From the NCBI RefSeq assembly GCF_020382885.2, contig NC_058506.1, positions 10,084,318 through 10,148,317 of the forward strand: a stretch of DNA of 64,000 nt, in the 5' to 3' direction. The notes beneath the pieces are model-generated. The model was given only the letters and a program-made list of their open reading frames with translations. It ran no database searches and was not told the origin of the DNA. Below are positions 26,901-62,885 of this stretch, piece by piece. The position numbers and the translations under genes were made by a program. This DNA comes from Scatophagus argus. Its lineage: Eukaryota; Chordata; Actinopteri; Scatophagidae. How positions within the stretch are numbered: position 1 is the stretch's first letter; the number at the start of each line of letters is the position of its first letter.

Positions 26901-29704
26901 ATCTTCGTCTTTAGGCGGTCTGGACAAAACAGAACGAGAACAATTCATCTGCATTATGAAATCCACACTGACAGACACTGAATGTGTTTCATACAGCAGT
27001 TAAATCCACAAAGCTACAATAACACACCACATACAGTATGTGTGTAAAAACATTTCATACATGTGGCTGTAGAGCAGCAGGTGTATTGAATGTCATTATG
27101 GCTGCTTCAACCACAGTCAGAAGTGGGAATTTGAAACATTTGTGCGCCCCCTGTTGGCCAAGGTAAAAGCTGTTTCAAATGCATCTGCAGTTTGTGTTCT
27201 CCATTATCAACTGTTTTTGCAGTAGTTGTTATGTTCACTGGTGGAATGTAACTGAGTACATTTACCAAAGTACTGTACTTAAGTACAAATTCAGGGATCT
27301 TGCATGACTTTTTACTTCTACTCCACTAAATCTGACTAAATCTGAGGGGATTATTGTAGTTTTACTCCATTACATTTGACTGACAGCTGTCAAAGATTAA
27401 GAGTTCTTTTATGGGTTGAGAAAACAACCCTCTTGGGTTAGCTGAAAAATACATCATAGTATTTATACATGTTGTACAGTAGTTGAAATGAGCTATAAAA
27501 AAATATATTGAACTGAAAACACAACTATTCACTCTTTCTCATGAAATGCAACCATAAAGATGTGTTCATACTGTGTGAGAAAAATAATGCATTATGCACA
27601 CTGCCTGTTGAAGCACATCAATCAAAGATGTTTTCCACATTAATTATTGTAAGCAGCAGACTGGAGCCAGTGTCAGACTGCAGCTAGAGAACGAATTTGC
27701 ATTTTACTGTGGAAAACATGTGATGAAATAGATGAGTTATCTTTCATTCTACCAGCTCCTCCATGACTCATATCAAAGCTTTTTGTAATAACTTTTATAT
27801 GGAAAGTAGGCTTCCTGCCACCATCTCTCTGGCATACAGCCGTTACACAGATCAGTGCTTGACAGAACTGACCTGTGTTGGGATAGAAAAACAAGACCAC
27901 TCTCGCTAAATTAATCAATCATCTACTTATGTTGTTTTGTTATGTGTTCCCAGAACTAACTAACTAGCAAACATGTTAGAAAAGAAGTGGATTTTTGTTT
28001 CATAAATTTACATTAAATTAGTAATTGGTAAATAAATGAAATAAAACTCTGTGCCCAGTCACTCCTATACTGCTGCGTCATGAAAAAGGAGACACTGACA
28101 GCTGAGTGGCATCGTGGTTGGAAGAACCCAGATTAGGAGGAATATGACGAAGCTCATTTCCAGTAAGGTGAAGGACCTTTAGATGTGGAAGTTCACCAAT
28201 AGTCATGATATCATCAGCTGACAAACTGTTGTAGGACAAATCCAAAACCTGTGATGGTTTAAGTGGAGGGAGAGAGAAAAACACAAGACACAGATCAACA
28301 TGACGGAGCTGATACAGAAAAATTAGAGAAGTCATTGCTAGAAGCACAAAAATGACCAATGTTACACACTTAAAAACGCTTTTGATTGGCCACTTATCAA
28401 ACTTTAATTGATAGTATATGGTTTCTCTGTTTGTCACCAGTTAATATCAAAGGTTTTCTATTACGAAAGAAGCTGAAAATGCACCAAAAGGACAGAAAAG
28501 AAAGAAAGAAGGAAAGAAAAAGGTCATGTCAAGTTGTTCATTGCTCCTGTGACGTGTTTATAATACAAGCACACATCATTAAAACTAGTGATGAGACTGA
28601 TAAGTGTGTCAGAGTCAGTCATCTTACCTCAAGATGAGGGAAGTCAGCAGCATAAAACGTCAGGCTGCTCAGCCTGTTTAACGACAGATTGAGTTCTCTT
28701 AAAGACACAAAACTGCTGAAAGACTCTGTAGGAAAAAAAAACAGAAATTTTGCAAGAGGCAGAAAATATTACTGAAGGTAAATCTGCAGGATCCATGAAA
28801 ATATTCACCCAAAGAGAGGTAGTTGATGGATGCGTTGATGTAAGCCACATTCTCAAACACCTTCAGGTTTTCTGGTTTGACCTGTGTGCGGTTAAGAAAA
28901 AGTCTTGAGTTGTTTTTACGAATAAACCACCAAATCAACCTGGCAAAAAAAAAAAAATGTGAAAAGCGATTCTTACAGAATTCAGTTGCTGCTCACTAAT
29001 GTCAACAGAGCAGAGGTCGGACGGCTTATCAACACAATGCAGTCGGAGCTACAAAAGAAAAGTGAATGTTGAACATTTTCCCTGGATCTTCTTTTGTCAA
29101 ATAAGCACTTCTCAAATAAAAACATTGCAGTGCCTTACCAGGAGAGGTCCATCTAATGTGTTACCATGAGGAGCAGCAGCCCTCCTGTTATTCTCACATT
29201 TCCTGTAAGTGTTTCTTATTCTTTGATGCAAATTCCTGTATTTCAGCTGCTCTGCCTCTCTGTAAGCCACGAGCCAGTGACCAGCACCTTCAAAGTAAGT
29301 CAAATTTAATAAAAATAATATTAAATTAAAGTCATTTTCGTTACGAATAAATCTGACCATTACTTTCTAGTACCCTGTTTTGTTCCTATAAATAGTGAAA
29401 AATGGCCAAATTAATTTCAAACAGTCATGGCTGAGATTCAAAAATATTCATTGTTATAGGCCTCTTTATTATTTTTATCATCAAAATGATAAGGCTCATT
29501 GATTAATCAACTTTTTACAAAATACAATTAATTGCAGCCCTTTTCTCTATCAATATGTTACAATGTGCTTTAATTTGCGAGCTGTCCTTTTTTTAAATGG
29601 ACAATCAAGCTTAACCCACCTTCTTTTCTTCGGTGGAGTAATGTCCGGAAACATTTTGTGGGATTGCTCTGTCCGTAATCAAATTTATGAGATTCTGCAG
29701 TCAT
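23960..29704 (-). CDS. xrra1: X-ray radiation resistance-associated protein 1, leucine-rich repeat protein
   Basis: Seventeen coding exons: 29620-29704, 29139-29287, 28977-29048, 28809-28881, 28628-28725, 28100-28248, 26815-26919, 26580-26698, 26419-26471, 26232-26321, 26051-26144, 25838-25956, 25574-25744, 24713-24857, 24470-24585, 24225-24330 and 23960-24135. All phases agree (639 aa). Leucine-rich repeats run from about residue 135 to 355, for example LRELNLSLNRLSSL, VLDLSYNSL, VLHLTGNEL, LEVLELDDNKL, LKCLNLQGN and LQFLNLADNK. They are capped by LREIDICANPLTTQRSGDLP and HYLQERLGI, which match human XRRA1. The C-terminal third is Lys/Glu-rich and probably disordered. Family knowledge: named for a role in X-ray response; the biochemical function is not established. 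The ATG at 29704 fits the family length before GHWLV; an in-frame ATG at 29806 is less likely. The promoter is shared with neu3. Human XRRA1 (792 aa) is longer, so the C-terminal exons are less certain. Confidence 0.92.
24936..25448. mobile_element. Non-autonomous DNA transposon (MITE-like) in xrra1 intron 13
   Basis: The left end GGTGGAAAGTAACTAACTAC, with CAGTACTTAAGTAC, and the right end TTTTACTTAAGTAAAGGATC then TGAATACTTCTACGCTGG are characteristic of a very abundant teleost element. Its terminal inverted repeats read roughly CAGTGGTGGAAGTA. The ends are degenerate (CAACGGTGGAAAG / CCAGCGTAGAAGTA). No transposase frame is present. A second, shorter copy lies at 27236. Confidence 0.7.
27236..27480. 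mobile_element. Second copy of the MITE-like element, in xrra1 intron 6
   Basis: CACTGGTGGAATGTAACTGA then AAAGTACTGTACTTAAGTAC is the same left end as the copy at 24936. A TACTTCTACTCCACTAAATC body follows. The matching right end is not visible, so this copy seems 3' truncated. Confidence 0.65.
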
Positions 29705-30715: not shown

Positions 30716-32060
30716 ATGGGAAACACACCATCAAAGAGTGGCAGCGGAGAGGAGCCGGTCAAGACAACTTTGTTTGAAAAGGAACCAAGTGGGATAACAT
30801 ACAGAATTCCTGCTCTCATTTATCTGAGGCACAGTCACACCTTCCTCGCCTTTGCAGAGAAAAGATCTTCGCCCTGTGACCATGATGCCAAAATCCTTGT
30901 TATGAGAAGAGGAACATTGAAAGATGACGGATCTGTTCAGGTTATTATTCACACTTGATAACCAACAGATTATCTTCTTCTTCAGTGCTAATAACCGTCA
31001 ACATTACATGTACGCATCTTTTTAATTGCTCTCTTTTGTCATGTTTCTCCAGTGGTCATCCAGTCAGGAGCTGACAACAGCATGTGTACCAGATCATCGC
31101 ACAATGAGTCCTTGCCCTGTGTATGAAAAAAACAGCAAAATGCTGTTTTTGTTTTTTATCTGTGTCTGGCGAAACACCACAGAGATCAGGCAGGTCATCA
31201 CAGGTAAGAACAAGGCTCGTCTTTGCTGTGTTAGCAGCAGTGATGACGGGCAAACCTGGAGTCAAGTGAAAGACTTAACAGAAAACGTGATTGGTGAAGC
31301 TCTCCACAAGTGGGCCACATTCGCTGTTGGTCCAGGCCACGGCGTGCAGCTCGAGAACGGCAGATTGATCATCCCAGCATATGCCTATTATGTCCCATAC
31401 AGATGCTGTTCCTTCCCCATTCCTTTTACGGTCTACCCACGTGCACTTTCAATATATAGTGAGGACTTTGGCCAGACGTGGCATCTTGGTAAGATGCTTC
31501 GAAAAAAGTCATGCGAATGTGAAATGGCAGAGATCATAGATCATGAAGGCAGGAGTCATCTTTACTGCAATGCTCGCAACTCTGGCGGCCACAGATGTGA
31601 GGCCCTGAGTGAAAACAGCGGCGTGTATTTTGACAAACCCCACATTGCTCCAGAGCTCGTCGAACCCCCTTCAGGCTGTCAAGGCAGCGTCATCGGCTTT
31701 CCTGCCCCTGAGTTCGTCCCAAATGATGATGCTGAAAGCAAAGCCTGTGGCACATCGCTCTTGTCTCCAGACACACAAACCTGGCTCCTCTTCATCCACC
31801 CAACTAACAAGTCTAGTAGAAGGGACATGGGCGTGTATTTGAACCGATCTCCCCTGCACTCATCGGGATGGGACAGGCCCAGGATCATCCATAGGGGACC
31901 CAGTGGCTATTCAGACCTGGCCTACAATGGAGACAAGGATCAGTTTTCCTGCTTGATGGAGTGCGGTAAGGAGAGTGAATATGAGCAGATCGCATTCATG
32001 TCGTTTACGCTTAATGATGTCATGCAGACGGGCAGCAAGAAAGACAAGAAGATGCGCTGA
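30716..32060 (+). CDS. neu3: Sialidase 3 (ganglioside sialidase, plasma-membrane type)
   Basis: Two coding exons, 30716-30940 and 31053-32060, joined in phase 0 (410 aa). The enzyme removes terminal sialic acid, mainly from gangliosides, at the cell surface and endosomes (family knowledge). Seen: the YRIP motif at 29-32 with the first catalytic Arg; FAEKRSS at 46-52; two Asp boxes, SSDDGQTW (137-144) and SEDFGQTW (201-208); the HKWATFAVGPGHG block; and GPSGYSDLAY, with Tyr361 as the likely nucleophile. These follow the six-bladed propeller of glycoside hydrolase family 33 as in human NEU3. The intron position after VQ/W matches the human protein. The N-terminus MGNTPSKS fits an N-myristoylation signal. 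The donor of the single coding intron is the weaker GTTATT. The start is in good context (CCACCATGGG). Confidence 0.96.
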
Positions 32061-38017: not shown

Positions 38018-41000
38018 TTAAGCACGCAGCTCTTTCTTTGAGTGTGGCTTATTTCCCAGCAGGGCATCAATCTCGGTAATGGTTTGAGGGGTCATTTGGG
38101 ATAAAATCTGCAAGGAGGAAGGAAGGATGGCAATTAGTTTTAAATATCACTCGTGACGCTTGGTACTGCATGCAAAATCTGTTGGTACAAACAACTGTGA
38201 TTCAGTATGTCAAGCAAAATCACTGATGTGGGAGGAAAAAAGGAAGGAAAAAATCTACCCGAAGGGCACCCAGGTTCTCAAGCAGCTGGTCTGTAGTAGA
38301 AACACCCAGAAGTACTGAGCTGACTCCCTCACTGCGTAGACACCAGGCTGTAAACAGAAAGCAAAGCAGTGAAACTGAGTGATGGCAGTCTAATGGCCTA
38401 AATAAACTTGCATTTATCAAAAATGGTTAAGCAGCTATTCTGACCTAAGAGCTGTTTACCAAATATGCTTGAAAACCTGTGTCATGACAGTGATCTCACA
38501 TCAGTACATTTCAATAATAGACAGGTAGGGTTACATGGTGGGCAAACCATGCTTTCTAAACAATACATCTGTGGTTGCATACTGGCACTAAGCACTCAGA
38601 TCTGGTGCCTAACTTCCCCTTTGTATGATCAATCAAAGCGTTTCTATCTTATGTGCAAAATAAGAGAACAAACATCAATAGTTTTATGACTCAGCGACAA
38701 AACATATGTGAGATTTGACAGAAATACAAATTTAAAACAGTTTAATCTCAACCTTTGGTCACACACCAATAACATAAACAAAGAACAAATCTCTGTGTGT
38801 CTGCACCGTACAGTCATGGGTCGTACCTATGGCTAACTGTGCAGCAGTGCAGCCCAGTCTGTCTGCCAGTAGATGGAGCTCCTTGATTTTAGCGAGCTGC
38901 CTGCGACCCTCCTCACTGTTCACTCGCTCCTTCAGCCACTGGTATCCCTTCACCAGGAGCAAAATGGAGAAAAGCATTGATACAGTACTGATTTCACACT
39001 GCAGTGCCCCACTGATCGGGGAGAAAATTACACTGAGGCTGATTTTCAGCAAGAAAAATCCCAGAGGAGGGCCGGGTAAATCAAACTGACCTTCATTGCT
39101 GCTCTGGAGCACTCTGGTACACCATCACTGTACTTCCCCGTGATTAATCCACAAGCAAGTGGAGACCAGGTCATTGCTCCAACACCTGAAAGAGTGGAAT
39201 AAGGATTGACATTGAAATGACATAAAATAAATGGAAAAAATAAAGATGAATATAGCTGTGAATATGAGGATGTCTGACCGATCTTGTGGTAGAGTTCAGG
39301 AAGCTGCACCTCAACTTTATCCCTCTGGAAATAGTGATACTCTGCCTGCTCACACACAGGTGGTATCAGGTTGAACTGCCGTGCCACAGAGTATGCCTCC
39401 TGGTGGCCAAACAGACAGAAACAAAATGCCAAGGTTACCAATCAGCATGTATACAGCAAGCTGACAACATTACCTTCATGAAGAGGGAGACTTTTTGAAT
39501 GAGAGATCAGCATTCACCATGATTTCCATGGCACTCCAGCGTGAGGTTCCCCAGTACATGGCCATCCCCTGGTTTATTACAAACGTCATGGCCCGTACAA
39601 TCTCTGCAACATCATATTTAAATTACATTTCTTTTATCACTCCAATGCAACTGTTTGTAGTTTTTTTTCATGTAGCAGACATAAAACATATCAACATATA
39701 TCCACACCTGATTACCACTGTGACTACCACATGATATGTGCATAATGATGTCAGAGGGCAGCAGACATCTTCAACTGACCTTCCATTGGACTGTTGACAT
39801 CATTTCTGTTGGCAAAGACGATGTCCACATAATCTAGTTGCAGTCTTGATAAGGATCCTCTTAAACCTGTCAAACAGTGGTCAATGATTAATCATCATCA
39901 TTGTCCGTTTGTTCTTTGTGGTGTGTTGTGACACAAACCTACAGACATGCTAGCAGCTCTATGAGGCTTCACTAAGGCTGTGCTTTGAACTAAATGCTAA
40001 CATGGTCACAAAGACAGTTCTAACATGCTGATGATTAGCATGCATGTTTGCCATGCTCACATTCAGTGTGTCAACATGTGGACATTTCTTAATTAGCACT
40101 AAAGACAGAGTACAATTACAGCTGATTGGAATGTTGCTTTGCAAATAAATGGCCATAAACCAAAGTGCTGGACTAATTGAAATTTTGCCAGATGAGAAGT
40201 TGATGTGGTGGCAGATTTGTGATGGCACTAGATGAAAAGCATCACCAAAGTCATCAGGATACATCTTCTCTGAATACCTGAACAAAACCTTATGAGAATC
40301 CACCTGAGTTGCTAAGATATTTTAGTTTGGACCAACGGACCATCACTGTCATTCATACAGTCAAACAGCTAGCATGGCTAAAAGTTGATTGCATGCAACA
40401 CAGCATGTTCCTGCAGAGTAAGATGGAGGTACTGTTCTTCAAATTTGATGCTAGATTTCCTACTTCTCAAACATTTTGGGTCAATATCTCCTGTTTTGCA
40501 ACTTTCCAACCTTGGCTATTTTAGCAATTCCATGCAGATGTTAAAACCACAAATGAAGTGAAATATGGAGCCCAAATATTAGAACCATCCGTCCACGTAG
40601 TTCATGTATTACGCAATGGCCTCAAATCAAAAGCCTCATGACAATGACAGTCAAACAGCCCTCTCAGTTCCTTCCTAAATGGTCACCTCAAGGCCGTACT
40701 GCTTACAAAACAAACAAAGAAGATGACCATATACGAGGCCATTAGCCTCTTAGCTTTCTTTAGCATTATTTTTGGGAAGGAAAGCTGATTAAATGACTGG
40801 AAAAATAATAAAGTACAGATGTTATTTGCACTGAGGCTTCCTCTCTGCATTCCCTCATCTGACCGCCTTTTGTTTTTCTTTGTCCCTGACTTCAGTTAGC
40901 ATGTTCATACTTCATACTTGAAATCATGCACCTCATTTCTTGCTAACGTATCTTCACAACTATGAACTCCTGCAAAGGAGTTTAGTTGTTTTTTTTCCTT

Positions 41001-44000
41001 TGCTGTTACGAAACACAGCCATTTATTTGATTTTAAGGCATGTTGATGTATTTACTGTGGGACTTGGCGTGGCTTTAACCGAGCGAGACAAACAGTGCTT
41101 GTCCTCATCACACTCATTGATCACAACTCGCAAATGTAAAAACTTGTGAACCTTATTTATTTACTCATCTTTAAGTGTATGTTCAGTGAATAAAAATAAA
41201 TTTATTTGACCTGTAATATTACATGAACTGAGTGGTGATCTCAAGCTTCATATCCTTCTCATGGTCAGCTATAATTCTCATACTCTACCTTCAATGATGT
41301 GTTTTCTAGAGAGTCCTCTCTCTGTCTCCGCTCTGTGGAGTGATGAAAATGCGTATTATTGATGTTAGGCCGAAATGACAAATGAAAACACGGACTCTGG
41401 TTGGAAAAAATAGTCTTCTTGTGTTGTTACTTACTGGCCTCCCCAGTAGATCTTTGTTGTGATGACAAAACTTGAGCGCCTGACAAGCAAACAAGAGGGT
41501 TAGGAGCAGAAAATCTTCAGTCTTCTAATGTCTACTTCCAATACTTTGTACAATATGAAAGCACAACAACACATAGTTTTCTTTTATTTATCCAAATAAA
41601 TATTTCTTCCAAATTAAAAACATCAACGATTTCCCGAATGTTCTTTGATGTGGGAGTTTATTTTCATATTTTTATAATTTTATGGTCTTTCTGAAGCTAA
41701 AGCTCCTCATGTATCAAAATAAATTGAAATATTTTAGAGGTATGCTTGTTCCAAAAGTAATAAAAACATGTAGAAATGCAGTGCATTTCAGAAAAGCAAG
41801 GTATTATTAGGGATTATTAAGATTTCCAAAACAATAATTTCAAAAGCTAATAGAGTCGGAAAGCTTTTCACATGAGTCACTTTGGAAAAATGAATAATAT
41901 CACCTCCATCCTTTCTTCTTGATGATGTTGCCTAAAGTGATTTCCGCTCTGTGGAGAAAAACATCCTTTACTGTGGTGGGTTGATGCTGACGTCAGGTGA
42001 GTGCACAACAATACTAAATCACACACTTAGTTGTTTATTGAGTGTATGAACACACAAACAAGAAGGACAACAGCAGCAAAAGTTTTAATCAGTGCTTCAA
42101 AGTCTGACCTTCCAGAGGCGTACACCTCTGCCGTGTCAAACAGGTTCACTCCATTCTCATAAGCTATGGTCATCAGGTTCGCAGCCATCTGGGGAAACAC
42201 AAAAACTGAGATTGAGAGAGGTAAACGAAAGATAAATTTCAATTACCCGCAGGTCATCCGTGAAGGGCACTACACAAGGAGGATACCACAGCAGATATAA
42301 TATCTCATATCTCACCATGCTACTGTAGTTTCCAGGAATCAGGTCTGTGGGATTTTGAAAAATGTCTATAATTGAAAATACTGAGATTTGAACTCATAGG
42401 GCAGCGTGTTTTCCACAAAAGCAACATGAGCGATCATGCTTGGTAATCGACTTCTCAGACAAACAGAGAGAAACAGAAGAATTCTCACCTCATCAGAGAT
42501 CTGTGATCCAAATGTCACCCAGGTGCCTGAACCAGAGCAGAGACAGAGACATTTGTTTTTGTATGAGGGGTTGAAACAGTGAGGAATATTTTCCTGCCTT
42601 CAAACCAACTCACCTAACCCGAGGCAGGAAACACGAAGGCCTGACTTCCCCAGGTTCCTGTGGAAAAAAAATAAATAAATAAAAAAAAAGGTCTATGAAG
42701 ATCAGAAATAAACAACGGGAAGAGACAGTATGATGGATGTGTGGGGACCTCGAGATGCATTTGTGCATTTGCACACTCAGTCACACACGAGATCCCATCT
42801 TACAGTACAAGTACACTGATGTGTGTGAGTGACAAGAAAAGAGCAGAATAACCCTTAATGATGAGAAGACTTCGTTACTTGTTTCCTTTTATGCTATTTT
42901 CTAAATTTCCGAGGCAAATATTGTTCTTTCTCCGCTGCAGTTACATGACTGTGGTTACTAGTTCATTTACAAATTAAGATTTTCTAAAAAGAAAATTGAT
43001 TATCTTTTAAAATAAGAAGCATCATTAACTTCCCTGGCTTGTAAAGTAGTTAAAAACATTCAAATGTCGTAGCAACATCGATAATACAATATACTGTATG
43101 TCTGAATAGTGCATTTACATAGAGTAGATTTTACAGCCAATACTTTGATACAGCAGTACTAAATCATTACAACAGTGTGGTGATGCTACTTTGACTCACA
43201 TTAAAGGAGTTTGGTTTTTAAGGATACTGACAACAAAAAATACTCAGTCTTACTTGGATCATTAACATGCGACGACAGAAAGTAAATATGATGTATGAAT
43301 ATGAAACAGTAAAGATAAAAACACTAACTTCTTTCTGTAGCGTTTGTGGACATGAATCCTTCCTACTCCACTGCTGCTGACTTAGTCTTTCTGGCCTGTA
43401 GTTAAATTACTGCCTGTGTCTAATTATTTCGGAACAATTGACCTTTTAATCCCTCCTGTGTTAACAGTTCACTGTATTACATTGGGTCAGTGAAACAGCC
43501 TGAGGGAACAGAGCTCAGCTCAGATATGGAGTCAAGGCAAAAGCTTCTCCGGTCTGCACGGTAAATGGCCCAAAATGTTCCATAAGCTAAAGAGGAGTCC
43601 ATTACCTAACATGCCACATCTGATTATCCAGACAACTGAATTTTGAAGGGCGAGCAGGGAACAGCAGAGAGTTGCATTTCTGACCACAGGAGCATGTACA
43701 GCTGAAAATGGTGCGGGCTTCATGCTCGCTCTCCTCCTCCATGCACGCTCTCCCCCATTCTAATTAGCCGGGGAGCCAGCTGGAGAGGCAGCAGAACTGC
43801 AGTGCAACTCGCTGCTCGCCGTCTTTTCATCTCCAGCGCCTCTCCCCTCTCTGCCTGTCTGCCTGCCCGCCTTCCTGTGTCCGCCACAAATAACCAAATG
43901 CAGAAAGACAGACTGTCAGAGCATTTCGACTCAGTCCAGCGAGTCCTGCTTTTATTTTGCCCAGTCTATTTATAATTCCTGACCTTAAACTATTTTTAGA

Positions 44001-50000: not shown

Positions 50001-52916
50001 CAAGTGACAACAGAAAAACGTTGTTTCATCGTTTCATGTTGTGCTCTATTGTTTATTTTGTCATGTCGCACTCTTTAAGGTACTATTTTTCAACATTTGG
50101 ACACACTTCAAGGTCTTCCGTACAGCACTGATGCAGGCAGGAAATTTGAATGAAGGCAACACTAACAAATACGGAGGCAACATGTCACAGTGCAGGGTAA
50201 ATCCAAACAGGAGAAAACTCCCACCTGTCGTACCTAAAAGCTTCTGCCACATGGACACGGTTTGAGTATGAAAAGTTTGACCAGAAAACTGCACTTTGCA
50301 AATAATTCCACAGACTCAACCGCTGACCTCTATTACCCGATTTACAGAAAATGTGTCATATTGTGATATGTATTATTACCTGGATATGAAATGTCACAAT
50401 ATATGAGATTTTGGTAGTATTGCGCAACCCTCCTATGTGCTTATGTGACTGTTTCAGTTGTCCTGGACAAATTGGTCCAAAGGTTTCACAGTTACTGTAA
50501 TCACACGCTGAGCAATCCAATATGTCAAAGGCTGAAAAACAATGTTGAAATATTGATACTGATGAATCAGGTTTTCTCTGGAGACACAAATTGCAGTAAA
50601 TGTAAAACATGCCTGACTGGCTCTTTTTCTGTTGTTTACATTGTTTGTACATTGATTACCTTGCACTTTTCCCCTTATCTTATAGACCGCACATACATTT
50701 TAAATGCTGCTGTAAGCATCAGTGTCCACTATGGCATTTTAAAGAAAATGAGCAGAAATTGAGAAGGTTTGATCAAAGAAGGGAGACCAAGGGAGAGAGA
50801 GCTGGGGCAGGGGGGTGACAGCAAAGGCCCATGGGAGCGATAACTGGCAGCAGATGCCATTGTCTGCGACCTGCCGGTGAGTGATGAATACTCAGGTTAA
50901 TGAGATAGCGGGAGGGATCAGAAAACATGCAGTCAGACAGGGAAAATAGTGGTAACGATAGGTGCCATGTGGAAAACGGAACACGGATGAAATCCAAATC
51001 ACTGCTCACTTCTGCTCCATTGTGGCATTCATTTGGCTTCAATCATCACTGTGTCAAGAAATCTCTGACATTCACGATACAGCATGTGGGCATGTTTTTT
51101 GAACGTTTCTGTTTCTTCCTGACAATCTGGCTGTGTCTGCAGTGTAAAATGGAGTATGTGTTACCACTGCGCTGCCATGATCACACTCTGTGGCCGGGTG
51201 GAGGGGCGTTGAGCAGACTCAGTTGCTGAAGGGACTGATAAGCGACGGCAGCATAGGCTGATTAGGAAAAAAGACGGACAAAAACTAAAGGCATTGCCTG
51301 GGGTGTTGCCCCTGGCGAATGGAGCTGGCCATATGCTGTATAGACTTATTGTGCTGCTGCACTCCTTATTAGTGACACTTTTCCTGAGGCAGCAAAGCAA
51401 CCAGAATAATCCCAACCAATCAGGAGTACGCATGCAGTTCTCAAGAAAGACCAAAAAAAAGGGTAGTGGAGATATCCAGGTTTCATCTTGTGCCTCATTC
51501 CCTTTTTAAACATCCTATTAAGAAAACTAAATTGACTGAAGAGAATGGCAGCAATTCAATCAACCTGATTACCAGGAAAACAGGTCATTAAAACTCTCCT
51601 CCTAGTTATTGCATTTGACTAAATGAACGACACAAGCGGTATGAGGTTGCAGTCTTAGACATCATGGATGGCGTTTCTCTGTAAATGCATATTTGCATCG
51701 ATGTGCATTGTTTTCCACAGCTCTGAGGACCCCTCTGTGAGTGCAGGCTGCATGCACAGCTGTCCTTGTCAAGCCGAAACTCTAATCCATCAAGGTGAAC
51801 TGACTGACTGATTCTGTGCCAGAAACTAAAAGAGAAAAAAAATCTTCTCCTTTCTTTTCTTGCTGTTTATCTGGTCTGTTTCCCCTCTACATTATGACTC
51901 AGATAGATACTGTGCTGCACCAATATATTATGAAAATTAAATGCTTTTAAAACCTCAAAGGGGATCTGGTGTGTCCTAAGGCACTTTTAGGTAAGCTGTT
52001 ATTGGAGGTTTTTCATTAATCTGTGGTGAAGGGCAACAGACCAGGGCAAAGTCTGCATAAAACATATGAGCTTATGGGAGATACTTCGATATGCATAATG
52101 TCTGTTATGCTGTGATAACATTGTGGCTGGTTGGTATGGATTATATAAGCATTTTTATATCCATCAGTGTAAGCATTTTTCGAGTAAATGTCAGATTTTT
52201 ACATTGTCAGTAAAATCACTGCTGTCTGTGCACTCACTGAGGTGCTTTTCAACCTTGTTAATGGGTATGTAGGCAGCCGGCACAGTACGTTACAGAATGC
52301 ACACTGGTGACAACTTAAGCTAACCTTAAGTTCACCTTGCATATAAACAAAACATATCGACAGAAACAGGAATAAAAGGAAGCCTGGCTGAGAGATGATG
52401 AGAGGGGGGCCGATCACATCACTTGAGCAGAGTTTGCCACAGATGCTCATTATGATAGTAATAGCTGTGAGACAATCTGGAGGTCAAAGGCCGTAATAAT
52501 CAAAGTGAAATGAAAACCATCCCTCTGATGGGAATTAACCCTCTGCCCCCTGAAGCTCAAGCTCCTGATCCCCATACTCACCTGTACTTCATATTGGTGT
52601 GGCGCCCGATGGCCTCCTTCATGTGGGCATGGCCCTGTGGGGCCTGACGGGAACCGGACCCCTCCCTGGTCTTGACTGAGCCTTGGGAGATGTAGTTGCC
52701 ATTACTACCTTGTCCACCACCACCACCTCCTCCACCACCACCTCCACTACCACCACCGCCACTTCCTCCTCCTCCTCCTCCTCCACCACCGCCACCTCCT
52801 CCTCCCCCTACTCCTCCACTGCTTCCTCCAGGAGGTGGAGCAGTGCGAAGGCCACAAAGTCGGTCCTCACTGCGACTCTTGAGGTTGTGCTCAGTGCAGG
52901 CAAAAGACACCTGCAT
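38018..52916 (-). CDS. kcnab3: Voltage-gated K+ channel beta-3 subunit, proximal-promoter isoform (aldo-keto reductase fold)
   Basis: Fourteen coding exons: 52582-52916, 42614-42657, 42489-42526, 42109-42188, 41904-41948, 41435-41479, 41289-41332, 39780-39866, 39518-39603, 39279-39399, 39091-39185, 38827-38947, 38259-38347 and 38018-38107 (439 aa). It is a cytoplasmic subunit that forms tetramers under Kv1 channels, binds NADPH and can block the pore. Residues 1-22 ([15 protein letters not shown]) match the Kv-beta-1.1/beta-3 inactivation peptide, including the redox-sensitive Cys7. A Gly-rich linker spans about 30-68 and the reductase core starts at [15 protein letters not shown] (113). The catalytic tetrad is present as D157, Y162, K190 and N230, with the same 5/28/40 spacing as in rat Kv-beta-2. 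The C-terminus, with LTPQT-like SQMTPQT and [10 protein letters not shown], favours KCNAB3 over KCNAB1/2. Intron 1 is about 9.9 kb. A second first exon lies at 57940. Confidence 0.95.
39943..40345. mobile_element. Dispersed teleost repeat in kcnab3 intron 7
   Basis: CAGACATGCTAGCAGCTCTA, AACTAAATGCTAACATGG, CTTAATTAGCACTAAAGACA, CATAAACCAAAGTGCTGGAC and a terminal GATATTTTAGTTTGGACCAA are, in this order, the segments of a widespread teleost repeat, possibly the 3' end of a LINE (family recalled, not checked). No reverse transcriptase frame is left. Confidence 0.65.
45985..46004. repeat. (TG)n microsatellite
   Basis: Ten uninterrupted TG units in kcnab3 intron 1. Confidence 0.85.
46071..46490. 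repeat. Possible dispersed teleost repeat
   Basis: AGGGTCAGTTCAGCTCAACA, followed by TTACAAAGAACATATTTTCC and ACTTGTGGTGCTTACAACA, resembles the left part of a teleost non-autonomous element (AGGGT-start, ATATTTTCCTC). Boundaries are approximate. Confidence 0.4.
49118..49466. mobile_element. Second copy of the element seen at 15701, in kcnab3 intron 1
   Basis: Has both ends: GGAGTAATTCGATGAGG on the left and CAATCTGTCAAATGAACTAT on the right, the latter an inverted relative of the left end. The interior holds CCAGTTAGCTTAGCTTAACA and GGCCATATGCTGTAGCTTCA. The inverted, self-similar layout suggests a palindromic MITE. Confidence 0.6.
52712..52830 (-). repeat. kcnab3: Trinucleotide repeat encoding polyglycine in kcnab3
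   Basis: An imperfect GGN tract inside coding exon 1, read on the minus strand as about 39 nearly pure glycines with a few Ser and one Val. GGA, GGT and GGC are mixed, so the run is not a single pure codon repeat. Human KCNAB3 also has a Gly-rich linker here but with many interruptions. Confidence 0.9.
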
Positions 52917-54148
52917 CCTGACCCTGGTTTCTGGTGTCTCTTACTTTGACAGAGACAGGGTAGGGGTGAGGGGGCTCTTTAGGAAGTCACACAAGCAATA
53001 AGGTCTGTAAACTGTTGGTGCTGCTTGATACTGTTTCCCCCGTTGTGCTCTTGTGGCAAAGCAGCGATGCTCATACAAAAGGCTCAGACAGGGCAGGTCA
53101 GAGCTTTTGGCTGAGAGTTGGAGGGAGCAGGCAAGAGTCCAGCATCTAACATGACACACACAGAGTTACCGTCTGCTCTGTCTCCTGTCTGTTGATGCAA
53201 ACCTGGCAAAAAGCTCTTAGAGTTTTCACACTCACAAGATGCATCAGGGCTGTTCTCCAAAAATCATCAGGAAGCTTGTAAGCTCGCAGCAGTCCTCAGA
53301 CGGGTTTGGGGATGTGGCAGATTTTGGGGAAAACCTCAGTGCAATAGATGGCCTCCCTGGAGGGTGTCAGCAGTTCGGCCTTTTCCACACATGCATGCAC
53401 GGACTCGTATGGCTTACGTTGGGTGGTAAAGCACCTGATAGCTTGCTGTCTCCTGTTCAGCTGAGGTTAGTTGTGTCTGCCTTGAGCTGAGGAGCTCCGG
53501 AGTGTGCCGCAGCAATGGCACAATCACAGCTACAGGCATCCTCGCACCTCGCGTTGAAATAAGGCATTTTGCTTCTTCTTTCTCTTTTTCTTCCCGTCAC
53601 AAGGTGTCTCAGCACAAACTGGCTTAATTGCTCGAATTCACATTGCCGAGGAGAGCAGTCCGAGCTGGGTAAACAGACTTGATGGGATGCGAATTCACAC
53701 AGTCAAACCCCACAGATGCATCATCGCCCAGCAGCCTCACGCAGCATCAAATTGATGCAACAGAAAGCGAGCGAGAGAGAAAGAGACAGGAGGGGGCAAA
53801 AGAAATAAATTCAAGCGCAAACACCGAGCCGTGTTTTTTTATTATTATTATTACCTTCAGCGTGTGAAGTCGTTCACGTACCGGCAGCAGCAGCAGCTGT
53901 GCAGGTCTCCTGTTATTCGGCAAAATCTCTCGGTGTTCGGATTTGAAAAAAATGCCGGCATACTGGCCCAAAAATCAGCTGCAGCGGACATTTCAAAACG
54001 CACGATGCCGCCTCTCGAGTCTCCTTCATCACATCGTGGTTTTTTTGTCAGATCGGACTTCCTTTTTGTTCTTTCTGGGTTTTTTTCCCACAACAGAAGC
54101 TCCAAAAAATCTTCACGACACACAAGCAATGTGGGGGTTTTCAAGATG

Positions 54149-54191
54149 CTCTCTCACTCTCTCTCTCTCCCTCTCTCTCTCTCTCTCACTC

Positions 54192-54245
<54 letters not shown>
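54149..54245. repeat. Long (CT)n microsatellite
   Basis: About 97 nt of CT units with a few CA or CC interruptions, and an uninterrupted run of more than 20 units at the right. On the kcnab3 strand it is a (GA)n tract just upstream of the presumed proximal promoter. Confidence 0.95.
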
Positions 54246-54247
<2 letters not shown>

Positions 54248-55302
54248 GTGTGATCTCTACATTTTTCATCACACTGGTGTACACACTTCTCATCACATCG
54301 TCACATTATGTTAGTGGAGCTTAAACACACGCTGTTGGGGTTTAACGTAATAATTGTAATTAAAAAATACAATTTCCACTTAATTCAGTTTCCACTTAAG
54401 GTCGACTTTAAACCGCCAGAGCTCCTGTTTCATGTGCAGGAATCCCTCTTATCTTTCTACCACACCCATGTTTTTCCACTGTATATCTGTATTGTCAATC
54501 ACCCAAACTGCAATACTGTATCTTCATCATCATCTCAAAACGAAGAGCAGATGCATGACTTCTCAGTCACCATCACATCATAACATAGCGTAGCATGGCA
54601 TATCATATCACAGTGCATCACATCACATCGTTTTGAAAGAAAGCTGATGTGTCATTTGGTGGTCAGGCAATGATGAGACTTCATTCAAGGCTGTGTTTAC
54701 AGTCTGAAGTCCTGCTGCCATATCCTTACAGAAGGCTGTCAATCCAACAAAAAAAGTTTCACACTACACAGCAGGACAATCTGCAAAATTACCTGCCTTG
54801 TACAAATAAAAAATGCAGACGTGCAAGCACACAAACATTCATCATTTCTGTCAATTTGCTCCCAGTGGTTGTGTCTAATTAAATCTTGCTTTACAGCACT
54901 CTGCACTCCCCGGGATGACTCCAGAGCAGATTGCATGGCAGTCAGCTGCCAGCAGAATGTAACTTCAAGTTGGCAATCAGCTCTTTCCTTTTTTTTTTTC
55001 AAAGAGCTATTCAGTGCAATTTGGGATGGGTAAGTTTCCAGTTGTATGGGCAGAAAGAAAACATGAATGCCACCTGCTGTGAAATTTGAAAAGAGAGCTT
55101 TAATGATCTCCCGTAAGTATAGTGAGTGCCTACACGGATATGTAAATGTTGTAGCCAAATTAGCCAAATGTTGTAGAGTTTTCATTTTATTGTGTTTTCT
55201 CTGATGAGTGAAAGAGGACAAATCTACACACTGGAAATCACTTTGACGAAAATCTTCATCTACACACACAGGCTTCACCTTTGTCATCATCCATGGTCCA
55301 GG

Positions 55303-55334
55303 TCCATCATCATCACCATCATCATCATCATCAG
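55303..55334. repeat. (CAT)n trinucleotide repeat
   Basis: About ten CAT units with one CAC interruption. Confidence 0.8.
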
Positions 55335-57939
55335 CACTTCAGAAGCCATACTGCACTAAAATCGATAGCTTCAGTGCATCAGCTCACTTCCACAGAGCGC
55401 CCGCTGCTCTGTCTTGATGTTCTGTATCATCAGAGAACTAAACTGCGAGTGTCTTTGGATACGTCTATTCACTTTTCTGCAAAAGAAGGAGGCTGCGTGA
55501 CATTGAAATGGGGAGATAGATGAGACAGACGCATTATACAGCAGATTGTATAGTGAGAATGTCCTTTAGAGGGTAGATGTTTTATACAACTCTGCCATCA
55601 GACTCTGCACCAAAGCTCGTTTCAAAGCGTGTCTCCTCTGATGGCCATCCTTTACAAACTGCCAACTCTCCATCCTACATGAAACGCTCAAGCTTTTTCA
55701 CGTCACGATGTTTGACAGACTGTTCTCTGCAACATTTACTAACAAGGTGCAGCCCACCTTCTTGATCCTCAACCCCTAATGTCATGATATGGAGGAGATC
55801 TTTTGTTTTAAGCGTGTGTCATCCATTTGCGGGAGTCATCATCTCATTCAGCTATAAAATTTCATTTAACTTAATAATTTGCAGTAACTTGTGATAAAAA
55901 TAATATTCTATGACACATAAAGCATTAGTTTCGAAAAGCATAAATGTTGTCAGTAGGAAGTGTAGATGGTGTGAAGAAACGTATCACCCACAGTGGCACA
56001 TTGTCATTGTTGTAGTAGCTGCAGAGATGCTAACAGCTGGTTCAGACTTGCTTGGACTGAAGCAGACATAAATAATGCTGAGAATTGTTTGTGGTCTGCC
56101 TCTACATGAAATGTGCTTGTAGTTCAGTAAAGCTGAAGGCCTTTTTTTCTCACGTTGGAATAGTCCCTCAGACATGTTTTTCTTGTGGTTTTGGTTCATC
56201 TTAAGAACGATTCTGCTTCACATTAAGTTTGTAAGAAAGAGGAGAGTCAGAGGACAGTTTTTAAATGCTTTTAGGAGAAGCACTTTTGCTTCAGTACATC
56301 GAAAATTCTGAATCCATTTGACAAATTGTAATATGTTTAAATGTCTAAACTTCAAGCTTTATTTTATCCAAAGAAAAGATTAGGCTCACAGCCCTCATAA
56401 TCTGTTTGTCAAAATGTAAATGTATGTCTCAGCCTCACAGACTCACTCTGCCTTCAGGAAACCACCGCAGGTGGAAAATTGTTGTTTCCAGCAAAATCAA
56501 CAAATTAGAGGGAACGCCAAGGTAGATTGTTAGCTGTAGTGTTGATTACAAGTAATCACTTTCAGTCATGAGGGAGTTCAGATCTGAAGCATCATTACAC
56601 AAATGAACCGAGGCTAACATATCACATGCAGTGAGACTGCTGCCATTACAGACAAGAAGTGTAAGAAGAAATTCACAAGCGCCAGCTCCAGTGATGGAAG
56701 CAGCACTGCCAAGGAGTTCAGATGCATTACACCCTGATATGTCACTCATTTATGAAATATGAACTGATACAAAATGCTCCAAATAGATCTGAGAGTTAAT
56801 GAGGCACGCATTCTGTCATTTGTCATTACAAGCAATACCCCTCCAGCGACAGATTTTGATCTTTTTTCTAATTGTCTGGTTTTGAGCCTTTGTGCCACCA
56901 CACCAGGGTGACACTGCCACCTAGAGGCAACTCTTCTGGAGTCTTACTGCCTGTGTGAGTGTGTATGGGATGTCATGCCTTATCGTGTGATGACAACTCT
57001 GTTTCATGAAAATTAGGTTTATACACTATTATTTTTCAACAGCCAATAAATCATGAGTGACATTCACAAACAGTGACACATGCACTCCAATGATAAAATA
57101 TGCAACAATATGCTCTTTGTCTCCTACGTTTCTGCATCACATTTTTCAGTGAAAATGGATTCATGGAAACCTTTTTATCCTAAAACAGCTAAGGTGAGCA
57201 CTCTCAACTGAGAGATACAAGCACTGTAACAACCAGCTGCCTGTCCCCTGCTGTCAAATCATGCATCATTAACCCCAAACTTATGCCCCACTGACGTTGA
57301 CCTATCGAGCAGTCTATCTGGGGCAGAAATTAGACAATGCTTGATGTACAAGTCCCATGTAAGCTACTGTATCTTCCATTAACATTAGGGATCCTCAGCG
57401 ACCAGCTGTTTTTGCAGTCCTGCCACATTTATTCAGCACTGCTGTGCTTTGAAATCTCATCAAATGGATGATATTTCTTTCTAGGTCACTGGTGGGGGGA
57501 AAAAAACTGCAAATATATTATTTTTTTCCACCCCTGAATGATGTCTCCACTCACTGCCTTCAATTGCAGTCCTCTTCAAACACTTGACTACATTCATGCA
57601 TTAGTAATATATGAGAAAAAATATTAATCATGTTGTTTAAATGGATTATCCACAGATGGCTGAGTGCTCAGGATGGTTTGACACACTCTCTCTTACTCTC
57701 TGAATCAAACCTCTTATTAAATCTGCAGATATGGCAGCTTTATGTATATATTTAGTTGTTATTTGCATCAATATCATACACAGTTATTTTCTCATTGTGA
57801 TCTCTTTAATGTGCAAATTGAAACAATTAATGAACAGAAGAGAGGGTTTAATTTTCAAGTGTTTTTCCAATACTAACATCTTTTTATTCATGAACATCTA
57901 ATTTTACATTAGACTTGTGCTATGCTTCTTCCCTCTTAC

Positions 57940-58235
57940 CTATATGTCATGGCAGAGCGCTCGGCCTCACACTCGGCCAGGGAGAGGCCACATTCCCTCA
58001 GGTAGAGCTCCAGCCGGCGTCGCTCCACGAGTCGGTGCGCCGCCTCCAGGATCTGAGAAGCCAGGGCCTCTGACTCGGTCTTCTGGTCCGTGGTCTTGCT
58101 GCTTCGGGCTCCAGATTTGGCCACAATACTCCCTGAGGAGGACGACGCCTTGGGCTTCTTACTGATGCCATAGAGGTCTTCCACTGAGTATTTCCCTCCT
58201 TTACCTCCTCCAGTCCCACCACGGCTGGCAAACAT
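57940..58235 (-). CDS. kcnab3: Alternative distal first coding exon of kcnab3 (Kv-beta-1.2-like N-terminus)
   Basis: An open exon of 296 nt starting at ATG 58235 and ending at a strong donor (ATATAG/GTAAGA). It encodes 98 residues plus two bases (AG). Spliced to the exon at 42657, whose first base is G, it rebuilds Arg and continues into [11 protein letters not shown], exactly as the proximal exon does; the resulting protein is 426 aa. The sequence MFASRGGTGGGKGG then GKYSVEDLYGISKKPKAS is unlike the proximal N-terminus. Its end, QILEAAHRLVERRRLELYLR then ECGLSLAECEAERSAMTYR, parallels the QLRARQLALLREVEMNWYLK region of Kv-beta-1.2 in position, length and helical character. A 5' acceptor (TTTGCAG/GGCTTG, exon from 58254) implies an upstream non-coding exon. 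It could instead belong to an unrelated gene, but the phase and homology argue against that. Confidence 0.82.
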
Positions 58236-60629
58236 TGTTACCTGCAGTCAAGCCCTGCAAACAGATGAAAATCGTTCTTTTCTTTTGCTTGGTTTTGCCT
58301 GCTACATCTATGCTGGGCAAAAGCTGCTTCTGAGTTAGACACAAAAGCACAAAGCAGTGCTATTTTGATAGAGATTCTCGAGGATTTAAAACATCCGGCC
58401 CGAGGATGTCAGACATCAAACTGTTGGAAACGAGAACTTGAAGCACCTGTAAAATATCAAAAAGTCTTGATTGCTCCTTTGTGGAGTCTAAATCCAAAAT
58501 AAAACAAAGCCAGTCCCAACATGTCAGCAACACCCAGTCACAAACAATGACTCCTGCTGATGTGAGGTGCTTCTTTGAGTAAAAACGGATAGGAAAAACA
58601 ATCAGCATCTTTCTCTCTTTATCTCTTAAAAGAGGGATTTGTGTTGAAGCCCAACCCCAGCTCACATGCTCAGATTAAGAGAGCGCCCAGATGAAGTATC
58701 TGTACTTCTATAATCTGACTCAGTGGAGGATGTGAGAGTTCACCTCTGTGACCTTTTCTACAAATCCTGAATAGTAATGCAGTTTATTTATTTATTTATT
58801 TTTTACCTTCATGGACAGTTATTAGTTGATCTGCAGGTGCAATGTCATCATAACAAACAGCCCCACTGCCTTCCAGCTTCTGTTGGCTCAAACAAAGACA
58901 GAGTGGCATCCTCCCAAAGCCTGGCACTGGCTTCAGGCCAGAGTGTTATTGTCAGGGTCTGGGTTAATGTGCAAGCCAAACCCCCAAATGTAAGTAAAAT
59001 CCCCGACCACTGATGTCAGGTTCATAAAAGACAGAGTGGAGCCATCATCTGTGTGCTAAAGTGAAATCAAATCAAAGGACACGGAGACAGACAGAAAATA
59101 ATGTGGAAAGCACATGAGGTTGCAGTTTACATGTTGAAGATTACTTCTCAACAGTATTATGCAAAGAAATCCACCTTCTAATCTCCTACATGCATAGCTG
59201 TCAAGTCTCAGTTTAAAGACCAATTGTGAGCACAAAAATGAATTTGTATCTTACATAAAAACAAATGCTTCGCTCTGTAAAGCAACTTCACAGCACTATA
59301 TTAACTCCCCAAGATAGATTTAAAAATTAAAACAGACGAGTCATGATTCATTGGTGAAGTTGGTGAAAATGTTTCATCCTCCCCACGTGACATGCTCTGC
59401 AGTGAGTTAAAGGTTGGATGCATAGGATTAAAAATCTTTCAGTGACTTAATCAATGGATGAGAGTGCATAAGTTCACAAATGTCAAGCCCATTGACTGTC
59501 CGGGAATCCCATTCATGCATCTGTCTGGGTCTTTTTGTCCCCTCATCTTCCAGCTGTCATGGCGACCAGGCAGTATCCCGAAGATACGGTCCTTCCTGTC
59601 TTCCTGCTGCAGTGGCTTTTAGAAGCAGAGATCATCTGGGATTATGCTGCTGTAATCGCTCTTTGGATTGACCACAGTCACACAAGGCAGCTGGAGGACG
59701 TCTGTCTTGATCCTCAGTGTAAATCACAACACTGAGTGTTTCTGGGCCACAGAGAGTGCATGATGGCCCCCAGCAGTGCTAAGTGCTGGGATTATTATGA
59801 TGAACGGCAGGAGAAGTGCTAGAAAAATATATGTCGTTTGTGCGAGCGATCTTGGTCTCTGCATTGTATAACTGTCAGAAATCTGGGTTAGAACAGTGGA
59901 GTTTGTTTTTAGGAATCTGTTGCATAACTGTGCAAAGATAGATTTAGTCAGTCTGACAATATAGTAACTCGGGAATATAGAGCACAAAACTGTGATGGAG
60001 TCAGGCTATTTTTTCCACCTTGTACATACTGTACAGGGATCAGAGGGTGGCGAGCTCGAATGTTTGAGAAAAGTGGGTATGGAGTCATTTCTGCCCATGT
60101 GTGGCAGAAAAAGCCAACAATCAGAATTCATGCCACTCCTGTTCAGGATTCTTACCTCAGCTTTAGTGTTACTCATCCACTGATACATTTAAATACTGCC
60201 ACCAAAGGGTGTCAGGCTCATTTTACTGTTACTATCAGAGTGGTGGAGCAGAGACAGTCTGTACAAGTCAAATCCCAAAACCACACTAAGATAAGAAAAT
60301 TGTAGTCAGCAGATTATGAAGTCCTCCAAATAAAATGAAGATATACAGCCTTTGTCCATTTTCTGATCTGACGACCAGAAGGATGACATTATGTGTCTGT
60401 AGCTTCGAAAGCTGCAACAAATCACTGTTAAAATAAAAACAATCTTACGCCGTGACAAACTATCAGTGGTCTCCTCTGGTCAAGTGTGATGATGTCTTGC
60501 TGAGCCATCCATCCATCCTGACCTCGTCTGTGCACGGACTTATATAATAATAATGACATAAAGATAGATGATGCGTTTCTGCTCCCTCCCACCGTTACAG
60601 AAGAGAGCTTCCATGTACAAAAATGTACA

Positions 60630-61028: not shown

Positions 61029-61704
61029 CTATAATAATGTCACCCAATTTCCTCCTTCGCTCCTGCCACAGTTACCACTCAGCTAAAGCACTTTGTCACT
61101 TGAACATAAACTAATGATGCTGTCACTCCTCTTCTGTGGACAGTCTCACATTATACGCTGAGCATTTTGTTTCACTTTTTGTAAAGCAGTGTTCTCCCCA
61201 GTGTTAGAAATGCTTTATGTCACAAAGTATTAGAATAATGTGAGACTGGTGCTGTTCCACAGAGAGCTTTTAATCCTTGTGGGATCATTTTCATACAGCC
61301 AACAAATTGACACATTTTACTTACTTGCTATGGTTCCTATTTTTGTTAAGATACCCACCAAAGTAAGGGTGGGAGGGAAACTGCTGAAAAACGAGGTGCA
61401 CACACCCTGTTTCTAAACACTATAGGCCTCGCTCGGTTTTCACGCAATTAAATTCTACAAGAATCATTATTCATGTTTATGTTAGTAGCCCATAGCTCTT
61501 CACTGTGCTGCACTGATTTGGTGTGTTTGTAATTTAATGGGGAAGTGATGTTCTTATTTTCTCATTGGGTTGGCCTATTGTTTCGTGTTATGCATTAATT
61601 GTTTCTATTTCTGGAATTATGAAAAATATACCTAATGCGTCACGATAACGTAGGTATGAAAAAGAGAAAAATTATTGGTCGGTTTAGTTTAATACGATAC
61701 TTAC

Positions 61705-62060
61705 CTGTAAAAAGCACAGAATACATACAGAATATACACGCGTTTCTTCTTTTTCAAAACGTAGCCACTGAGTGCATGAATTTAAATCTTTGAGGAGGTG
61801 CTGAACCTCTCAGACCTCCACCTGTGGCCGCCCAAGTGAAACGTGACTCGGCTTTCCCTTCACGGTGCGACATGCCGTCGTCACCGCTAGGAGGCGACAA
61901 AGCCTCGCCACTGAAAGGTGGGCTACAGCAACTGATGTCCAGCAGACAAGTCAAAGTTAGCGTGTGGGAAGCATAAAAAGCTCAATCTCGACTCAGTTTG
62001 AGACACTAGACAGCCGCCCTGTGGTCGAGGAGACACTCACATCAATTGTTGAGATATTGA
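61705..62060 (-). other. kcnab3: Candidate non-coding first exon and CpG-rich promoter of the distal kcnab3 transcript
   Basis: A consensus donor (TTACAG/GTAAGTATC) on the minus strand ends at 61705 beside a CpG-rich patch. It would splice to the acceptor before 58254, giving a 3.4-kb 5' UTR intron. The 5' end is a guess. The support is splice-site quality and local composition only. Confidence 0.4.
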
Positions 62061-62166
62061 ACGCCTGACAAGCAATAACAAAAGCATGGATCCATCCTGT
62101 ATCTGACTTGACTTGTAAACATTACATATAAGAACTCCAGAGCCACTTCACTGCACACACGTTGCT

Positions 62167-62187
62167 CTCGCTCTCTCTCTCTCTCTC
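62167..62187. repeat. (CT)n microsatellite
   Basis: Ten CT units within the CpG-rich patch upstream of kcnab3. Confidence 0.85.
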
Positions 62188-62885
62188 GTGTGTATGCGTG
62201 TCTGATTTTGTCAATCCCGACATATGGAGGCAGTTGAGCGGGCTGCACACTGTGGCGGCAGTTTTGCGCAGCACGCTGTTGCATAAACAAAAAATATCCA
62301 GGCATTAAAATGTATGCGTGACACGGGCTTATCGATTCAGGCAGCATGGTTTTCTGAATGAAAAGTCTCGGATATGCTGAGACTCTGCACGCACGGCCCG
62401 ACTCTCTCTGCACAGACAGCAGCCCGCATCCATGTGTGACAAACAGATGCTGTGCGTGTATTCCTTATTTCAAGCGCCAAACAACTTTATCAACATAAAC
62501 GTGAAGAAAAACAAATATTATTTTGTCATTATTAGGAAAAACAGAGATTACAGTTTCTGCGCGCTAGAGGGCGCTTAAAACACAGAAAATGATGCCAGTC
62601 TCCTTTTGGGGTACATTTTCCTGTTTTGGATATGCTGTGTATTTGTAGAGCAGTGGTTTTAACTGCTATTTCATATAAAACTGTATGAAATTAGAGAGTA
62701 TGCCCAGGGTTGATTACAGTTGCTTTAATTCAGTAATCTGATTACATTCAACAGTGCACACATACACACTTAAACCTAGTTGTATTACATCCAGATGCTG
62801 GTTAAATCATAACCATATGCTCCTTCCTCAGATTTCTAAGTGGGCTCTGCACATAGTGAACAAAGGTGCACGGAGTCAGAAAGGA

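What the first reader, a model, noticed from the sequence alone, without database searches (positions are those of the whole stretch)
52582..58235. kcnab3 has two unrelated first coding exons with identical splice phase
Both exons (52582-52916 and 57940-58235) end in ...AG before GT and complete the same Arg codon with the G at 42657. The proximal one encodes the Cys7-containing inactivation peptide. The distal one encodes an N-terminus that aligns in position and helical character with Kv-beta-1.2, known as an alternative product of KCNAB1. Human KCNAB3 is usually described with the first type only. If real, the promoter choice seen in KCNAB1 predates the split of KCNAB1 and KCNAB3, and fish beta-3 would come with and without the classical ball.
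Basis: partly seen in the sequence, partly recalled or inferred. Interest (0 to 1): 0.8.

Follow-up and report, generated by a model that had tools for sequence, protein, structure and literature searches.

The report
Fish potassium-channel gene with two starts
This fish gene for a potassium-channel helper protein carries two alternative beginnings, each probably giving the protein a different pore-plugging tip, and sister genes in the same genome show a similar arrangement, which suggests it is older than the family's split into three genes.

Summary
Observation confirmed. Both exons are open, end ...AG|GT and complete the same AGG Arg codon with 42657; each gives an uninterrupted kcnab3 protein (426 and 439 aa). 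The host genome is held: a second kcnab3 copy (C23) has both exons in the same order with the same ending; its distal exon is 54% identical, dN/dS about 0.32. C23 exons 2-9 were not seen; a 5-kb run of N lies there.

Corrections. (1) Among KCNAB1 exons the distal one looks nearest to 1.3, not 1.2 (head MFAxR like MLAAR, profiles 75-78), though its tail alone resembles 1.2 and kcnab2 as much. (2) "Without the ball" is doubtful: Kvbeta1.3 inactivates through its own head, in which Arg5 matters, and Arg5 is kept. (3) "Unrelated" holds for the heads; several first-exon types share a faint tail.

Upstream-type exons were found at all six kcnab loci, so the layout probably predates the three KCNAB genes. 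A sturgeon Kcnab3 probe primer translates to GKFSVE, matching the distal exon's conserved block, with its partner in the core: a lead that this isoform is transcribed in electroreceptors. No RNA reads were available; tetrapods were not testable.

The parts
57940..58235 (-). distal first coding exon, probably Kvbeta1.3-type: MFASRGGTGGGKGGKYSVEDLYG...YLRECGLSLAECEAERSAMTYR
   Evidence: open frame, donor, shared Arg codon; paralogue copy on C23 E 9.8e-18; dN/dS about 0.32
58236..58254 (-). 19-nt leader between a strong acceptor (ATTTTCATCTGTTTGCAG|GG) and the distal ATG; suggests a noncoding exon further upstream
   Evidence: acceptor rank 69 of 8394 by a recalled weight matrix; inference
61400..62200 (-). 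candidate promoter / noncoding exon of the distal transcript: holds the highest CpG observed/expected among 500-base windows, with a consensus donor ACAG|GTAAGT ending at 61705
   Evidence: inference, no RNA evidence; other stretches (about 6.3 and 29.9 kb) are nearly as CpG-rich
52582..52916 (-). proximal first coding exon, Kvbeta1.1/Kvbeta3.1 type: [22 protein letters not shown]...poly-Gly...NMKYR, with Cys7
   Evidence: tblastn with recalled human KCNAB3 E 1e-14, without low-complexity filter, so inflated by Gly runs
53500..54300 (-). CpG-rich stretch upstream of the proximal exon, candidate proximal promoter / 5'UTR
   Evidence: CpG o/e 0.85-0.92 in 500-base windows starting 53501-53801, against window mean 0.39; inference
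42614..42657 (-). shared exon 2 ([14 protein letters not shown]...), acceptor CCACAG|G
   Evidence: acceptor rank 8 of 8394
38018..42526 (-). remaining 12 shared coding exons, to the stop codon: Kvbeta aldo-keto reductase core ending [13 protein letters not shown]
   Evidence: TIGR01293 Kv_beta E 9e-180; KCNAB3 clade

Best explanation
kcnab3 in this fish has two alternative first coding exons, probably each with its own promoter, spliced in the same phase to one aldo-keto-reductase core. The proximal exon encodes the Cys7 ball of the Kvbeta1.1/Kvbeta3.1 type. The distal exon is most likely the kcnab3 counterpart of KCNAB1 exon 1.3: a short glycine-rich head beginning M-F-A-S-R5, a flexible chain and a helix leading into the core. 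The likely mechanism is promoter choice that swaps one inactivation tip for another: a Cys7 tip open to redox and heme control, or a Cys/His-free Arg5 tip expected to be insensitive to them and perhaps PIP2-sensitive. The arrangement most likely existed before KCNAB1, KCNAB2 and KCNAB3 separated. Shown: exons, phase, conservation and selection in the paralogue, and upstream-type exons in all three gene families of this genome. Inferred: promoters, transcription in this fish, inactivation by the distal tip, one-to-one match to 1.3, and age.
Confidence: 0.78

Rival explanations
1. The distal exon is real but is a Kvbeta1.2 counterpart, or descends from the shared ancestor of 1.2 and 1.3, so that no one-to-one match to 1.3 exists.
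Confidence: 0.2
2. Independent origin: kcnab3, kcnab2 and kcnab1 each gained an upstream first exon on their own, and resemblance in the tail reflects the demands of the junction with exon 2.
For: Heads are short and low in complexity; between gene families the upstream-type exons share only 4 to 13 of the last 26 residues, and 1.1-type tails share some of them too.
Against: Same order, same phase, M[LF]A start in the kcnab1a 1.3, kcnab2a and both kcnab3 distal exons, and significant profile scores between families.
Confidence: 0.12
3. The distal open frame is a chance or relic exon not used in mRNA.
For: No transcripts could be examined in this species.
Against: Exon, frame, start and donor kept in the C23 paralogue with a synonymous excess; sturgeon primer match.
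Confidence: 0.03

Closest known systems
KCNAB1 alternative first exons 1.1, 1.2, 1.3 (Kvbeta1.1-1.3); mouse layout from PMC6509479 (passages read)
   Same: several first coding exons joined in one phase to a common core; the 1.3-type most upstream and the 1.1-type nearest exon 2; heads MQVS..C and M[LF]A.R
   Different: here in kcnab3 (and kcnab2); two first exons found rather than three, no 1.2-headed exon found in kcnab3; the distal exon is about 5 kb upstream of the proximal one, not 130-170 kb
Human KCNAB3 / Kvbeta3.1 (sequence recalled; function from PMC7239824, passages)
   Same: proximal exon ([19 protein letters not shown], Gly-rich) and core
   Different: the passages seen describe one N-terminus for KCNAB3, the Cys-bearing one; no distal exon is mentioned in them
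Kcnab3 of sterlet and paddlefish electroreceptors (PMC10982350, PMC11936418, PMC12456953, PMC5429088; passages read)
   Same: sterlet probe primer encodes the conserved block GK[FYL]SVE of the distal exon
   Different: the passages seen do not mention N-terminal isoforms; the transcript sequence itself was not seen

Membership tests
Kvbeta subunit (AKR6A) | Kv_beta aldo-keto reductase core | tested here: met
   TIGR01293 E 9e-180, bits 596.7 over cut-off 365.4; PDB Kvbeta2 E 5e-179
KCNAB3 orthologue | core groups with KCNAB3, not KCNAB1 or KCNAB2 | tested here: met
   C14+C23+human KCNAB3 (recalled) together at 0.994; C3+C8 (kcnab2 by recalled C-terminus and, on C3, recalled beta-2 first exons) at 0.995; no human KCNAB2 in the tree
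Kvbeta1.3-type first exon | most upstream first exon found, same splice phase | tested here: met
   gene order of mouse Kcnab1 from PMC6509479
Kvbeta1.3-type first exon | head M-[LF]-A-x-Arg5, no Cys or His in the ball | tested here: met
   MFASR (C14), MFAGR (C23) vs MLAAR (kcnab1a C5, recalled human); first His of the window's exon is residue 67, first Cys residue 82
Kvbeta1.3-type first exon | significant full-length similarity, better than to other types | tested here: inconclusive
Kvbeta1.3-type first exon | N-type inactivation of Kv1.5, Arg5-dependent PIP2 effect | not testable with these tools
   needs electrophysiology
Kvbeta1.2-type first exon | head M[YH]LxK..C.DIP.P | tested here: not met
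   head absent; 1.2-headed exons found in kcnab1a and kcnab1b
Kvbeta1.1/3.1-type first exon (proximal) | MQVS..C head with Cys7 | tested here: met
   MQVS..C7 in 5 of 6 kcnab genes of this genome
alternative promoter usage | transcripts from two start sites | not testable with these tools
   no RNA data; CpG-rich stretches near 53.5-54.3 and 61.4-62.2 kb only suggest them

The most novel reading that the evidence does not exclude
The common ancestor of KCNAB1, KCNAB2 and KCNAB3 already switched between a Cys7 (redox/heme-sensitive) ball and an Arg5 (1.3-type) ball by choice of first exon; all three descendants kept it in fish, even kcnab2, whose mammalian product is described as lacking an inactivation peptide, and the Kcnab3 used as the electroreceptor marker in sturgeons is the distal, 1.3-type isoform.
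Probability: 0.42. Interest if true: 0.7.

Novelty: new member of a known kind. Interest (0 to 1): 0.52.

Why it matters
It would turn a feature known from KCNAB1 into an ancestral rule for the Kvbeta family and makes a clear prediction: fish beta-3 comes with two different inactivation tips, one redox/heme-controlled and one not. It would also mean that probes and knockouts for Kcnab3 in electroreceptors should be read isoform by isoform, since the published sterlet probe appears to span the distal exon. And it raises the question whether mammals lost tips that fish beta-2 and beta-3 retain.

Tried and rejected
Rejected: chance open frame (paralogue, dN/dS). Not found: a third, 1.2-headed exon of kcnab3 in the window or 10 kb upstream (motif scan; it would miss a diverged ending). 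A PDB search with the distal exon and a Pfam search with both exons gave nothing useful. A DNA-level match of the sterlet primer is not significant (14 of 20, and a 15 of 20 match lies elsewhere in the window); only its translation is informative, and only two of its three forward frames were compared (the third begins with a stop). The proximal exon as query found, besides itself, one poly-Gly match with an internal stop on C22 and no other 1.1-type exon; recalled Kvbeta1.1 found those of kcnab1a, 1b and 2a. No 1.3-type exon was found for kcnab1b and no 1.1-type exon for kcnab2b: losses, divergence or limits of the search. hhalign with two-row alignments has little depth, so its E-values are rough. 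Paper searches for prior description: (10 of 10; most listings were capped at 10-20 rows of 18-106 papers, and I saw titles and abstract openings); no listed title or abstract opening describes alternative first exons for KCNAB3 or KCNAB2. Public genome annotation could not be looked up and may already list such isoforms.
Full report
What is there. The window holds kcnab3 on the minus strand. Thirteen shared coding exons run from 42657 down to the stop at 38018; either first coding exon, 52916-52582 or 58235-57940, joins them in phase and gives one open frame of 439 or 426 residues, with AG before all 13 and GT after the first 12. The protein is a Kvbeta subunit (TIGR01293, E 9e-180; Kvbeta2 structures, E 5e-179). 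It is a KCNAB3: the last exon is 79% identical to recalled human KCNAB3 over 28 residues and 47% to recalled KCNAB1 over 32, and in a tree of 8 sequences and 196 core positions (29 of them missing for C23) C14, C23 and human KCNAB3 group at 0.994 support.

Not chance. Both donors are strong for this window (51st and 2nd of 7624 GTs), the distal frame has an in-frame TGA 15 nt before its ATG, and the pattern Met-x-Tyr/His-Arg|GTR in this phase occurs only at these two places in 64 kb, both strands. The window's own genome is held (G000, 570.7 Mb in 48 contigs; window at C14:10084318-10148317). The distal exon finds one other match at E 0.001 or better: C23:15906763-15907002, E 9.8e-18. Read in full it is MFAGRASAAG...GGKGGKLSVEELYGFNKKPK...MERRRLEIYLKECDVTMEQSDMPYR|GTGAGA, 54% identical. 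C23 also has a proximal-type exon, MQVSIACN...HAHMKEALGRHGNMKYR|GTGAG, at 15903751 downwards, between the distal exon and the C-terminal core exons. Exons 2-9 of that copy were not found; a run of 5000 N lies at 15896251-15901250, where they would be, so the join in C23 is inferred from position, strand and phase. C14 and C23 are two copies of kcnab3, presumably from the teleost genome duplication (inference), and both kept both exons. Over 90 codons of the distal exon dN is 0.387 and dS 1.217: purifying selection, with dS high enough to make the ratio rough.

The family view. Six kcnab loci were found: kcnab1a/b (C5, C13), kcnab2a/b (C3, C8), kcnab3a/b (C14, C23). 1.1-type exons (MQVS..C) were found in 5 of 6 (not kcnab2b). 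Upstream-type exons were found in 6 of 6: 1.3 and 1.2 in kcnab1a, 1.2 only in kcnab1b, a distal type in kcnab2a (MFAGGYAGGPRGG...MEDFLKMNGLALEECVSYQTGMKYR|GTAAGA), its partner in kcnab2b without the MFA head, and the kcnab3 pair. Where both kinds occur (5 genes) the upstream type is always 5' of the 1.1 type. kcnab2a also has exons matching the recalled canonical beta-2 start further upstream. The simplest reading is that the ancestor of all three genes had this layout. Tails before the junction are related across several types (kcnab2 distal vs 1.2 E 8e-8, vs 1.1 1.8e-5, vs 1.3 1.5e-5; 1.1 vs 1.2 3.3e-4; 1.3 vs 1.2 2.3e-3), so the first exons may themselves descend from tandem copies; within kcnab3 the direct tail comparison, distal versus proximal, is weak (permutation p 0.006-0.036 for the four fish pairs). 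'Unrelated' fits the heads only.

Is it transcribed? No reads were available. One outside lead: the sterlet Kcnab3 riboprobe, used as the electroreceptor-specific marker (PMC11936418, PMC12456953, appendix passages), has forward primer GGTAAATTCAGCGTGGAGGA, which in frame 1 reads GKFSVE; window GKYSVE, C23 GKLSVE. Of 17 sequences compared, the two kcnab3 distal exons match 5 of 6 and the other 15 no more than 3. Its reverse primer reads KHIIEG, in the shared core. Passages of PMC10982350 say that Kcnab3 was cloned, and that probes came from cDNA fragments or from synthetic fragments based on transcriptome data; on either footing the distal exon would be spliced to the core in a non-teleost fish. 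Chance of such a match is about 0.2% per frame (455 of 200000) to 0.4% (88 of 20000). That paper's Supplementary Table S1 and the sequence were not seen.

How it probably works. Kvbeta1.1, 1.2 and 3.1 carry Cys or His in their tips and their inactivation is heme-sensitive; Kvbeta1.3 lacks both there and is heme-insensitive (PMC7239824, passages). Arg5 of Kvbeta1.3 was reported as critical for PIP2 binding that removes inactivation, though another group found Kv1.5/Kvbeta1.3 insensitive to PIP2 (both as told in PMC3456799, passages). The window's distal tip, MFASRGGTGGGKGGK, keeps Arg5 and has no Cys or His before residue 67. I therefore infer that promoter choice swaps a redox/heme-controlled ball for a 1.3-like one, not for none. 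AlphaFold2 gives residues 1-50 at pLDDT about 50 and helices 18-22, 48-81 and 86-95, compatible with a tether; this is weak evidence. A strong acceptor lies 19 nt before the distal ATG (69th of 8394), and the C23 copy has one 2 nt before its ATG; together with a CpG-rich stretch and a consensus donor ending at 61705 this suggests a noncoding first exon upstream. That is inference.

Verdict. A real, selected, alternative first coding exon of kcnab3, a new member of a known kind of arrangement (KCNAB1), with an unexpected extension to kcnab2. Public annotation may already list it; the listings of ten paper searches showed no description of it.

Noticed in passing
G000:C3:10275017-10275229 (L041): kcnab2a has a 1.1-type ball exon (MQVSLVCTDHRGGVSRNTEDRLNRQ...TGMKYR|GTACGA), although Kvbeta2 is described as lacking an inactivation peptide (PMC7239824 passages).
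   Followed up: partly
G000:C8:25149550-25149861 (L051): kcnab2b distal exon lacks the MFA head: its frame begins MPKPGGS directly after an acceptor-like TTCTAG, so it may be internal or headless.
   Followed up: partly
G000:C23:15896251-15901250 (L033): run of 5000 N inside the kcnab3b gene, where exons 2-9 would lie; assembly gap or withheld stretch.
   Followed up: no
window 52710-52830: the proximal exon holds a long poly-Gly run (GGVGGG...GGGQG) that is much shorter in the C23 paralogue; human KCNAB3 (recalled) is Gly-rich in the same place.
   Followed up: no
window 54150-54250: long GA microsatellite upstream of the proximal exon's 5' region.
   Followed up: no
window 61400-62200: highest CpG observed/expected of the window's 500-base stretches and a consensus donor ACAG|GTAAGT ending at 61705, possible distal promoter and noncoding exon.
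   Followed up: partly
window 15140-15430 (+), 28078-28437 (-), 31026-32060 (+): neighbouring genes: a von Willebrand C domain exon (chordin-like by recall), a leucine-rich-repeat exon (xrra1-like by recall) and a sialidase (neu3-like by recall); only the Pfam domains VWC, LRR and BNR were tested.
   Followed up: partly
PMC11936418 and PMC12456953, Kcnab3 riboprobe primers: the electroreceptor marker probe in sterlet seems to start in the distal exon, so published Kcnab3 patterns may be those of one isoform.
   Followed up: partly
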